Source of the DNA: Dehalococcoidia bacterium
GTDB lineage: Bacteria; Chloroflexota; Dehalococcoidia; Lucifugimonadales; UBA3495
DNA: 64,000 nucleotides
NCBI GenBank assembly: GCA_022827095.1
Contig: JAJDTP010000035.1
Location: 1-64,000, forward strand
Reading direction: 5' to 3'
The translations under genes and the position numbers were made by a program. Each line of letters begins with the position of its first letter. Positions within the stretch are counted from its first letter, which is position 1. Positions 36,881 through 42,253 of the stretch are shown here, in pieces. The notes beneath the pieces are model-generated. The model ran no database searches. It saw only the letters and a list, made by a program, of their open reading frames with translations, and was not told where the DNA came from.

Positions 36881-37067
36881 GCTGCTACCTCCCGGGCTCG
36901 GTTCCGCGTATCTGTTGGCGCGATTGTAAACGCGATCCGTTCGCCTGTCATTCCGCTGTCAGCCCGCAGGCGGTTGGGAAATAGGCTGGATCACTGCACT
37001 AACCAATCACTCCAAATATAGGTACAATCGGCAACTACGCTCCGCAACCAGCGCCCGGGACGGAAAT

Positions 37068-40000
37068 ATGCCAAGCGACAATGTACCAGCCATCATAGAA
37101 CAGGCTATCAGCACAGTAGCCGAAGCCAACCCGCAGAGTACTGGCGGGCAGTGGCTCGAAGACCTCACCGTCGCCGTGTCCCCCTACATCAAAGAGTGGG
37201 ACATTGCTCAATGCTACCCTTGGGCCGAGTGGCCTGAACGGGAAACCCGCTACCCCGGCACCACCAAGCAGGACATAGGCGTTGACTGCGTAGCCGTGCG
37301 GCGCAGCGACGGCGAACATATCGCCATCCAGTGCAAATCCCGACAACTTGACGAACACGGTCGCGGCGCCGACATCACCAAAGCCGAAATCGACAGCTTC
37401 GCCAGCACATCAGCCGGCGAATTTTGGGCGGAGCGCTGGATTGTCACCAATGGCGACAATAGACCCGGCGGAAACACGCTTCAGGTCGCCTCCATGCACG
37501 GCGAGCCCATCAAGATGGTCAACATCGCTAATGATCTGCTGCAACAGCAAGCGGCTTTTACCCACGAAGAATGTCTGCACTGCGAACCCAATCCCGACGG
37601 CGAGGAACGCAAGCAATCCAAAACCTGTATGCAGTCGGAAGCCATCACCGAGAGCGTCCGCATCCTCAAGGAACACGAACAATCCGCAAGTGGCGGCCTG
37701 CCCGTAGGCTAGGCCAGAGGCAAGATCATCCTGCCCTGCGGCACCGGTAAAACCCGTATCTCCCTGCGCATCGTCGAGGAACTGACGCCGCCGGGCGAGT
37801 TGTCCATCGTCCTGTGCCCTTCCATCGCCTTGGTCGCTCAAATCCGGCGTGAGTACCTGCAACACGCCGAAACGGAGATCCGTGCGCTGGCCGTCTGCTC
37901 CGATGAAACCGCCGGCTACGACCCCAGGAAGGAAAGCTCGCGGAACGCTACTGCTGACCCGACGGTGGACAACAGCAACGTCAGCGCCTCCGAAGTCAAG
38001 GGCAATGTCACCACCGACCCGTCGCTAATCGCTGCGTGGATTAGCGACGACCAGGGCGCCGACCGGGTGAACGTCATCTTCGGAACCTACCAGAGCGGCC
38101 ACCGGGTTGCCCAGGCTCTGGCCGAAACCGGCGTAACCGCCAGTGTGCTTATCGCAGACGAAGCCCACCGCACCGCCGGCCTGCGCCGGAAGCGGAACGC
38201 CAAACCCGGAACCCTATCCCCGGAAGAGAGCCGTATCCGCGACTTCACGCTGTGCCACGACAACGACGCTTTCCCGGCTACTTACCGCGTCTATCAGACC
38301 GCCACACCGCGAATTTACGACACCAGCAAGGTGAACTGGGACCAGCCCAGCGACTGGATTGTCCGCACTATGGACGACGAAACCGTGTTCGGCGTGGAGC
38401 TGTACCGCAAAACCTACGTGGAGGCGGTCGAACATGGCTGGCTCGCCGACTATCGCATCATTGCCGTGGGCGTCAACGGCCCCGACGCCCACGACATCGC
38501 CAACCGGCTGGCCGGGCAAACCGCCAGCAAGGGGCGCAACGCACTGACCACCACCCACTTCCTGCGCGGGCTGGCCTTTGCCCTGGCCATGGGCGGCGCA
38601 ACGCAGAGCCGGGAACGGGACACCGTGCCCATCAAGTCCTGCATCGCGTTTATGAATACGGTGGACAAGTCGAAGAACATGGCCGATGACCTCCAAACTG
38701 CCACGGTCACCAAGTGGCTCCAGGACTGGCTGGACGAAAATCGCGAGGGGCAAAAAGCCGCCGACTACACGCTGCAACACCTGGACGCCACAAGCAACGT
38801 CACCACCCGCGAAGCCGAGAAGGCCAAACTGGCCGTAGCCACTGAGGCAAACCCCCACGGCATCATCAACGTCGGCATCTTCGGCGAAGGCACCGACTCC
38901 CCGTCGCTGAACGCCGTCGCCTTTCTGGAAGCCCGTAAGAGTCCCATCGACGTTATCCAGGCCGTGGGCCGCGCCATGCGCAAAACGGACGACAAGGAAA
39001 TGGGCTACATCATCTGCCCCATCGTCATACCGCCCAGCGCCGACCCCGAGCAGTGGCTCAGCGCCAGCAACATGGAAGAGGGATGGTCGGAGCTGGGCCA
39101 GATTCTCCTGGCCCTGCGCGCCCACGACAGCCGCATCGAGGACAACCTGGCCGAGCTGCTGCACCTGTACATCCCCCAGCCACCGCCGTCAGTAGTCAGC
39201 ATCATCGGCATCGCCGGCGGCGAGAACAGGCGCATCCAGTACCGGGAGCACGAAGGCGCGCCGGGCACGGCCCAGGCCGCCGTAGAGCGGGTGCTGGCCG
39301 GCAGCAGCACACTGTCGAGAGAATTCCGGCCCATTACTGAACCGGCAACAGTGTCTACGGAACCGCCGGCCAACGTTTCTGTACTGCCCCTCACCGCAGA
39401 CGGACAAACCGCTGGTGATAGCGGCCATAACATCGCGGGTGTCCGCCCCGAACCCTACCAAACCCCGACCGAGCCGACCCAAATCATCACTGGCAAGAAG
39501 AACGCCGACGGCAGCGTTGAGCTGCGCATGGGCACCCCGGTCCGGGGCAAGCAGGCCCCGGATGGAACGCGGGGCCCGGTGGATGTCAGAAAGTCCAAGG
39601 ACAAGGCCCGTGACATGGTTAACAAGGGCGACGGAGTGCGCCTGACTCCGGGCGGAAAACCTCGCCGCACCCGCGCCGAGGTTGCGGATGCCAACGCGCT
39701 GCGCCTGCTGGAACTCTCCGGCCTGGAAGACCAGGGCAACGTCATCAGGATGAACCTCCTCGCCAAGTCCGGCCTGGTGGACAACCGCGTGGTACGAGAC
39801 CTGAACATCCTGGAATCCAGCGTCAAGGAAGCGGCCCATCACATGAGGAATGACAGCCTGCAACCAGCGCTGGACCGGCATTTCGGGCTGGACAACCTGA
39901 AAGAAAACGAGGCCAAAAATCAGGCCGACGGCTGCACCATCGCCGCCCTACTGATGATGAACGCCGCCATGCTCCACCAGCGCATCGCCAACGGACGCTG

Positions 40001-42173
40001 GTTGACCGGAGTCAACGACCTGGATACGGTCAAGAACGTAACCAACGTCGTCCGCATGACGCTGCGCCAGTGGAATACCATCATTGGGCACGACTTCAAG
40101 CCGGTTATGGAGCCGGCGGTCAAAGCTATTGAAGCGGTTGAGGACACCGGACGACTGGCCGGGCTCGAGCGTGCCCTGCGCCACATCACGGCGGAGGCGG
40201 AACGCATCGCCGAAACCTACGCGGACATGGGCGCCGACCACGCCGGCCCCCTGTTCAACCGCGTCATGGGCAACCAGGCCAGCGACGGAGCTTTTTTCAC
40301 GCGGCCCGTGGCTGCGTCCATTGCTGCCCGCCTCACCCTGGATGCCTGTGGGGAATTGGACTGGACGGACGAAGCCGTCTGGCGTTACCACAAGACTGTT
40401 GACCTGGCCTGCGGCAGCGGCACCCTGCTGGCTGCCATGCTCACCGACATGAAGCGCCGCGCCCGGGAACAGGGCGCCAACGAGGCGCAAGTCACCGAAC
40501 TACAAAAACTGGCGGTGGCGGATACTATCAAGGGGTTGGACATCAACCCGGTGTCGCTGCAACTGGCAGCGTCACAGTTGACCGCCGGCAACACGGATAT
40601 CCGCTACCGCCAAATTGGCCTGCACCTGATGCCCTACGGCCCGCACCCCGTCAATCCGACACAGGTGTCTGTGGGAACGCTGGAACTGCTGGGGCAGAAG
40701 ACCATCGTTCCCAGGGATGAAGGGTTGGGACTCGCCGACGAACGGATCCGCTCTCAAATCATCTGGAACCAGCAGGACGACGCTGAGCTGGAAGATGCCG
40801 TTGATGCGGCCAAAGATGCCGGCATTGTCATTATGAATCCGCCCTTCTCAAACCGGACCAAGATGGGCGAAAAGTTTTCCAAATCGATTCAAGAGTCGCT
40901 ACGGTCTCGTGTGGACACCATGGAGCGGATATTAGTCAGCAATGACAAGGATATGGACGACTTCGTCGACAAGAATTCTGTCCGTCCTCTGTTCGTTGCG
41001 CTGGCTGATAGATGCTTGCGCGACGCAGATGGCATCCTGACGATGGTAACTCCAACGGTTGCGTTATGCGCTCCATCTGGACTGAATGAGCGGCGCGTCT
41101 TGGCGCAACGCTATCATATTCACACCGTGCTCACCGGCCGTTGGCCCAGAGAGTTCAGCCTCAGCCAAAATGTTGAGATAGACGAAAGCATCATAGTAGC
41201 CACGCGCAACAAGCAGGCCAAAGCGCCAACCAGATTTGTTCATTTGGACAAGATGCCAGTTGATGAAGCCGAAGTCGACGACTTATACCACTGCTTATTG
41301 AAATGTCAGCAAGGGCAGATAGCGAACGGTTGGGGTGAGGTCTCATACTGGCCAGCCAATAATATGGTTGAGGGCGACTGGACGCCGGCAATTTGGCGGT
41401 CTGCGGAGTTGGCAGAGGCCGCTGCACGGTTCGCAAACGATAGTAATTTGCAGTCATTAAATGCGACCGGCCGGTCGGCGCAAGCGACAGGCCGGTTGCT
41501 GCGCGGCTCGTACGAGTCGGCAACTGCCGGCACTCCGGGAAGTTTTGCGATACTGAAATCCAAGAGTACCGATGGACAAACTCGGATACAGAGCCAGCCC
41601 GATGAGTACTGGATACCAAAGGATCGCAATGAAGAGGTGCTAGAATTGAACGATGGCACCTATCCAGAAGTCGACTCAATTCTACAGAAGGCGGGACACC
41701 TGCTAATTACGGCAGGTCAGGACAGCAAGACGGGCCGTGTCACTGCGACGGCGGATGACAAGCGTTACACTGGTAACGGTTGGATGCCAGTATCTGGATT
41801 GTCACCGTCGGAAGCGAAAGCAGCCGCAGTATTCATCAACTCAACCGCCGGACGATTGCAGTTGATGCGGCACCCGGGCCGAAAAATACCGTTTCCTACT
41901 TACAGCGCAGCAGAAGCAAGTAGCATCAGAATACCGGATGTCAAAGACGCCAGTATCAGTCAAACCTTGGCCCACTGTTGGGAGCGCACCAGGGACATGA
42001 CCGTGCCGCAGTTTCGCGATGGCGAGTGCGAAGTGCGCCGCCTGTGGGACGACGCCGTGGCCGAGGCCATGGGTTGGGACGCGGAGGAACTGGCCCACCT
42101 GCGCCACCTGCTACACAACGAGCCTCACGTGCGCGGACTGGGTTACGGCCAGTACGCCGACGAAGTGGAATAA
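37068..42173 (+). pseudogene. Type ISP-like single-polypeptide restriction-modification enzyme (Mrr-type nuclease + SF2 helicase + N6-MTase + TRD), interrupted by in-frame TAG at 37710-37712
   Basis: ORFs 37068-37712 and 37800-42173 share a frame. 'GVDCVAVRRSDGEHIAIQCKSR' (D..QxK nuclease), 'LPCGTGKT' (Walker A), 'LIADEAHRTAG' (DEAH), 'YQTATPRIY', 'VDLACGSGTLLAAML' (MTase motif I), 'IVIMNPPFSN' (motif IV). Confidence 0.85.
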
Positions 42174-42253
42174 AACAAATGGGCAAGCCGGGTCGGCCGA
42201 CGGTGTTACAATCGGCACGCAACCCGGACGCAACCCATCAAGCGAGGAAAATC

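What the first reader, a model, noticed from the sequence alone, without database searches (positions are those of the whole stretch)
37068..42173. Type ISP-like restriction-modification gene split by a single in-frame TAG between nuclease and helicase
Seen in sequence: ORFs 37068-37712 and 37800-42173 are in one frame, separated only by TAG at 37710-37712 ('..GGLPVG*ARGKIILPCGTGKTRISLRI..'). The Walker A motif (GTGKT) lies between the stop and the next ATG/GTG/TTG in frame (TTG at 37800), so canonical re-initiation would give a helicase lacking Walker A. Established knowledge: type ISP enzymes (LlaGI/LlaBIII type) join an Mrr-like nuclease, SF2 translocase, N6-adenine MTase and TRD in one chain of about 1,600 aa; this one is about 1,700 codons. 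Inference: it is either a recently inactivated gene, a strain polymorphism acting as an off switch, an amber readthrough product, or a consensus error.
Basis: partly seen in the sequence, partly recalled or inferred. Interest (0 to 1): 0.8.

Follow-up and report, generated by a model that had tools for sequence, protein, structure and literature searches.

The report
Amber-interrupted Type ISP-like restriction gene
A large one-protein DNA-cutting and DNA-marking defence gene in an uncultured Chloroflexota-like bacterium carries one premature stop codon that its relatives lack; it is most likely a recently disabled copy of a mobile defence gene whose DNA-marking half is of an unusual kind.

Summary
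One frame (37068-42173) is open except for TAG at 37710-37712, between an Mrr nuclease and an SF2 motor. Walker A (37740-37754) precedes the next ATG/GTG/TTG (TTG, 37800). Nine aligned relatives, seven uninterrupted along the alignment, read CAG or CAA there; an actinobacterial one reads GAG. No homologue found is made as two genes at this point. TAG is therefore a C-to-T nonsense change in a one-chain gene. TAG is an ordinary stop here and no CUA tRNA was found. The 1486 codons after it keep every motif and show no significant relaxation, so the stop is recent, or a consensus error, which reads alone can settle. The gene is a single-gene insertion at a site that is empty in close relatives. 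Relatives are broken independently (amber at another codon, amber plus insertion, frameshifts), so loss looks routine. The Type ISP label holds only for residues ~12-718. The C-terminal ~1000 residues lack the Type ISP coupler and specificity domains and resemble solitary plasmid N6-adenine methylases. Best reading: a recently inactivated, horizontally acquired Type ISP-like enzyme. In H. pylori the C-terminal fragment of a split Type ISP gene methylates alone; whether this one is expressed is unknown.

The parts
36960..42195 (+). Approximate extent of the inserted single-gene segment; the cupin and CMD neighbours are ~158 bp apart in G013, G011 and G001
   Evidence: Homology to the empty sites ends at ~36952-36959 and resumes at ~42194-42203; exact junctions uncertain
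37068..37712 (+). ORF1: Mrr-family nuclease domain, 214 codons, ending in the premature TAG
   Evidence: Pfam Mrr_cat_2 E=3e-13; motifs GVD 71 and QCK 88
37710..37712 (+). In-frame TAG at codon 215; CAG or CAA in nine aligned relatives, GAG in Poriferisocius
37713..39221 (+). SF2 helicase-like motor (ResIII, Helicase_C); Walker A at 37740-37754, DEAH at 38157-38168
   Evidence: Pfam; LlaBIII 4XQK E=1.2e-47 and LlaGI 5FFJ; motif positions
37800..37802 (+). First ATG/GTG/TTG in frame after the stop (TTG), downstream of Walker A; no Shine-Dalgarno-like sequence next to it
39222..42173 (+). C-terminal half: variable linker, helical region, N6-adenine MTase (DLACGSGT at 40401-40424, NPPF at 40836-40847) and presumed target-recognition part; ends in TAA
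   Evidence: Weak Pfam UPF0020/MTS/Eco57I; plasmid N-6 DNA methylases; no ISP_coupler or Type_ISP_C

Best explanation
A horizontally acquired, single-gene Type ISP-like restriction-modification enzyme (Mrr nuclease, SF2 DNA-translocating motor, N6-adenine methyltransferase with presumed target recognition in one chain) has been inactivated recently by a C-to-T nonsense mutation (CAG to TAG, codon 215). SHOWN: the stop; its absence from every relative aligned at this codon; the collinear one-chain architecture; the empty site in close relatives; the otherwise intact motifs; no significant sign of relaxed constraint after the stop. INFERRED: translation ends after the nuclease; that fragment lacks motor and target recognition and so cannot restrict; any product begun at or after TTG 37800 lacks Walker A and cannot translocate; restriction is therefore off. 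A product begun further downstream might still methylate, leaving marking without cutting, as shown for a split Type ISP locus in H. pylori (PMC3936762).
For: Codon is CAG/CAA in nine aligned relatives and GAG in Poriferisocius; profile collinear across the stop; no CUA tRNA among 54 tRNA places and TAG ends 18 of 46 long ORFs; empty site in G013, G011, G001; independent lesions in relatives G015, G446, G007, second G328 copy; only one disabling change in the whole frame, which fits a recent event.
Against: No sign of decay beyond the stop: dN/dS 0.11 after it, branch comparison p=0.26, all motifs intact. This equally fits a consensus error or a population polymorphism. No reads or expression data were available.
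Confidence: 0.75

Rival explanations
1. Sequencing or consensus error: the organism's gene has a sense codon at 37710 and the enzyme is intact.
For: The single substitution is the only defect in 1701 codons; constraint is unchanged after it; the genome is a draft of 35 contigs.
Against: An isolated substitution in a consensus is uncommon, and similar lesions occur independently in relatives assembled separately. Not testable here.
Confidence: 0.13
2. Population polymorphism or off switch: part of the population carries the sense allele, and on and off states are selected in turn.
For: Repeated independent breaks in the family; a Poriferisocius homologue is frameshifted at a (GA)12 tract, a classical phase-variation arrangement.
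Against: The window site lies in no repeat and a point nonsense reverts slowly; no strain-level data were available (one genome per species).
Confidence: 0.06
3. Reduction to a methylase-only gene: the C-terminal part is initiated internally and kept by selection as a solitary N6-adenine methylase.
For: In H. pylori HP0669, the C-terminal piece of a broken Type ISP locus, methylates alone (PMC3936762); the methylase part stays constrained.
Against: No strong internal ribosome-binding site; ATG 39615 has only a weak AAGG/AGGA-like sequence. The motor part shows the same constraint, which a methylase-only gene would not need.
Confidence: 0.04
4. Amber readthrough or recoding gives a full-length protein.
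For: Frame and constraint continue past the stop.
Against: No CUA tRNA found, PylS only far below cut-off, TAG a frequent normal stop, no relative has TAG at this codon.
Confidence: 0.02

Closest known systems
Type ISP restriction-modification enzymes LlaBIII (PDB 4XQK) and LlaGI (PDB 5FFJ)
   Same: Mrr nuclease followed by SF2 motor with a downstream N6-MTase in one chain; residues 26-716 match LlaBIII at E=1.2e-47; family profile aligns over residues 12-718, E=1.6e-98
   Different: No ISP_coupler (PF22240) and no Type_ISP_C (PF18135), which a canonical enzyme shows in the same scan; no significant similarity of the C-terminal ~1000 residues; window copy interrupted by TAG
Plasmid-borne N-6 DNA methylases, e.g. 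Aminobacter pUSP4 (947 aa) and Sulfuricystis pSTJ1 (971 aa)
   Same: Align with the C-terminal half (22% identity over 792 aligned positions, E=2e-33 in a small-database comparison, Aminobacter), sharing DLACG(T/S)GTL and NPPF motifs
   Different: Free-standing methylases without nuclease or motor
Split Type ISP locus HP0667-HP0668-HP0669 of Helicobacter pylori 26695 (PMC3936762)
   Same: A one-chain Type ISP gene broken into pieces; shows what the C-terminal piece can do alone
   Different: Broken by two frameshifts rather than one nonsense codon; HP0669 was shown to methylate when overexpressed, nothing is known for the window gene

Membership tests
Type ISP R-M enzymes | N-terminal Mrr-family nuclease | tested here: met
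   Mrr_cat_2 E=3e-13
Type ISP R-M enzymes | SF2 helicase-like motor related to LlaBIII/LlaGI | tested here: met
   4XQK E=1.2e-47, 5FFJ E=1.7e-45; hhalign 100%
Type ISP R-M enzymes | All-helical coupler domain (PF22240) | tested here: not met
   Absent in Pfam scans; present at E=6.7e-50 in a canonical enzyme
Type ISP R-M enzymes | Gamma-class N6-adenine MTase | tested here: inconclusive
   DLACGSGT and NPPF motifs; only weak family matches in the window protein, N6_Mtase above cut-off in distant relative G111
Type ISP R-M enzymes | C-terminal specificity domain (PF18135) | tested here: not met
   Absent; E=7.7e-101 in a canonical enzyme
Type ISP R-M enzymes | All functions in one polypeptide | tested here: met
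   Relatives are one uninterrupted frame; not so in the window copy because of TAG
Type ISP R-M enzymes | ATP-dependent translocation, cleavage after collision, methylation of one strand | not testable with these tools
   Needs biochemistry
Stop-codon reassignment or amber suppression | A tRNA reading UAG | tested here: not met
   54 tRNA places, no CUA anticodon; PylS model below cut-off
Stop-codon reassignment or amber suppression | TAG avoided as an ordinary terminator | tested here: not met
   TAG ends 18 of 46 long ORFs in the window

The most novel reading that the evidence does not exclude
A subfamily in which the Type ISP nuclease-motor module is joined to a methylase of a plasmid-borne, free-standing kind, repeatedly turned off by nonsense or tract mutations between nuclease and motor so that cells switch from restriction-plus-marking to marking only.
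Probability: 0.06. Interest if true: 0.6.

Novelty: new variant of a known kind. Interest (0 to 1): 0.3.

Why it matters
The stop itself is an ordinary, probably recent inactivation of a mobile defence gene. Two things give it modest value: the Type ISP nuclease-motor module occurs with a quite different methylase half, which would show that the motor can be paired with other recognition modules; and one family of related genes offers several independent inactivations for studying how single-chain R-M genes are lost and whether a methylating remnant survives.

Tried and rejected
(1) Natural two-gene organisation: rejected, no homologue found is split at this point. (2) Recoding or suppressor tRNA: not supported. 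(3) Frame breaks in G006, G041 and G298 lie at runs of N, so they are assembly gaps and were not counted. (4) AlphaFold model of the C-terminal half with four sequences: mean pLDDT 37.5, unusable, so no fold search was made. (5) Viral origin: none of the pattern-matching viral contigs encodes a relative; two Listeria phage records match residues 14-697 at 27.7%. (7) Shine-Dalgarno scan for internal starts: only weak candidates (the first version of that scan, printed nothing and is not relied on). (8) One literature search for described Type ISP subfamilies gave no paper.

Full report
OBSERVATION. The frame 37068-42173 reads 214 codons, TAG (37710-37712), then 1486 codons to TAA. Walker A GTGKT (37740-37754) precedes the first ATG/GTG/TTG after the stop, TTG at 37800. 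PADLOC profile PDLC03597 matches both pieces end to end (profile ...187 | 188...).

THE STOP. Homologues were taken from the same genus, family and order. At the homologous codon they read CAG (G010, G012, G015, G025, G008, G003, G006) or CAA (G032, G019); an actinobacterial homologue, Candidatus Poriferisocius, reads GAG. Of these nine, seven have no break along the alignment; G015 has its own amber elsewhere and G006 is cut by an N-gap. G123 and G059, more distant, are also uninterrupted over the aligned stretch. TAG is thus a single C-to-T change in a one-chain gene, not a natural gene boundary. TAG terminates 18 of 46 long ORFs in the window (a mechanical ORF set, not curated genes). The genome (3.79 Mb, 35 contigs, 97.65% complete, 4.24% contamination) has 54 tRNA places and no CUA anticodon was found among them; the PylS model matches only far below cut-off.

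HOW OLD. After the stop, dN/dS between the window and G010 is 0.11, the same as before it; changes polarised with outgroups give 69N/70S on the window branch and 48N/67S on the G010 branch (Fisher p=0.26). In the methylase part alone it is 49/46 against 24/38 (p=0.14). Many sites could not be polarised, so the test is weak. About 3.1% of single-base changes in the 1486 codons would make a stop, so a neutral divergence of only 0.02 per site would be expected to bring ~2.8 further stops; there are none. The stop is recent, or an error, or the downstream part is still under selection; these data do not separate the three. Catalytic motifs are intact: GVD 71, QCK 88, GTGKT 225, DEAH 364, AVGRAMR 632, DLACGSGT 1112, NPPF 1257.

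A MOBILE, OFTEN BROKEN GENE. In G013, G011 and G001 the cupin gene and the CMD gene that flank the window gene are ~158 bp apart. Intergenic homology to the window stops at ~36952-36959 and resumes at ~42194-42203 in the clearest cases, so the gene was inserted there alone (or, less parsimoniously, lost from all the others). None of the relatives' genes shares flanks with the window within the stretches compared. Independent lesions without N-gaps occur in the family: an amber at codon 555 in G015, at a column that is CAG in most relatives; an amber at residue 207 plus an interruption of ~1.6 kb in G446; frameshifts in G007; a frameshift and stop in the second G328 copy; and a frame change at a (GA)12 tract in Poriferisocius. 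Apparent breaks in G006, G041 and G298 are runs of N and were set aside.

WHAT THE ENZYME IS. Residues 26-716 match LlaBIII (4XQK, E=1.2e-47) and residues 200-716 match LlaGI. A profile of the family aligns to annotated Type ISP enzymes over residues 12-718 with 100% probability (E=1.6e-98). The C-terminal ~1000 residues do not: no solved structure, profile comparison with Type ISP gives only a weak stretch around NPP(F/Y) (probability 0.8%, E=0.069), and of the several hundred plasmids matched by the motor the methylase half finds only three records, none annotated as Type ISP. A canonical Type ISP enzyme run in the same way shows ISP_coupler and Type_ISP_C strongly; the window protein shows neither. 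The C-terminal half instead aligns with free-standing plasmid N-6 DNA methylases, and distant family member G111 gives N6_Mtase above cut-off. Canonical Type ISP genes also occur in other genomes of the same class. The window gene is therefore Type ISP-like in architecture and motor, but fails two defining domains and is not filed as a member. Whether REBASE already holds such enzymes was not testable.

MECHANISM. In Type ISP enzymes the TRD and MTase recognise the site and the motor translocates; convergence of two translocating enzymes is needed for cleavage (PMC7049714, PMC4872093). With translation ending at codon 214 the nuclease has neither motor nor recognition; a product begun at or after TTG 37800 lacks Walker A. 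Restriction should be off (inference). Methylation could persist if the C-terminal part were initiated internally; the H. pylori HP0669 precedent (PMC3936762) shows that this is possible in a Type ISP locus, but no good internal ribosome-binding site was found here.

VERDICT. Reads are needed to exclude consensus error.

Noticed in passing
L004:4864-4889: The Candidatus Poriferisocius homologue has a (GA)12 tract in the nuclease-motor linker, and the reading frame changes across it: a candidate phase-variable restriction gene, or an assembly slip.
   Followed up: partly
window:42171-42173; 3' ends in L074 (G010), L075 (G006), L076 (G032), L078 (G012), L081 (G008), L083 (G123), L086 (G003): These relatives continue in frame past the window gene's end with a ~95-110 aa domain without a Pfam match; window, G015, G025, G059 and Poriferisocius lack it. 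The window's genome has a similar domain as a separate ORF at G000:C10:94686-94964.
   Followed up: partly
window:37023-37033 and 42207-42217: TACAATCGGCA occurs on both sides of the gene: possibly a mark of insertion, or two similar promoter -10 regions.
   Followed up: no
window:12433 and 35743 (+ strand), four further copies on the - strand; L002:1256 and 2672: A dispersed ~35-bp repeat (CGAGATCGCCGCGTCGCTGCGCTCCTCGCGATGAC) occurs six times in the window and in a same-genus contig.
   Followed up: no
L080:9081-9290 (G025): A second copy of the last ~70 codons of the enzyme lies downstream of the G025 gene, perhaps a remnant of another copy.
   Followed up: no
window:41941-42169 against G008: The last ~230 bp are 87% identical to G008 while the 1.9-kb aligned block before is 71%, suggesting recombination that exchanges the middle (recognition) part.
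   Followed up: no
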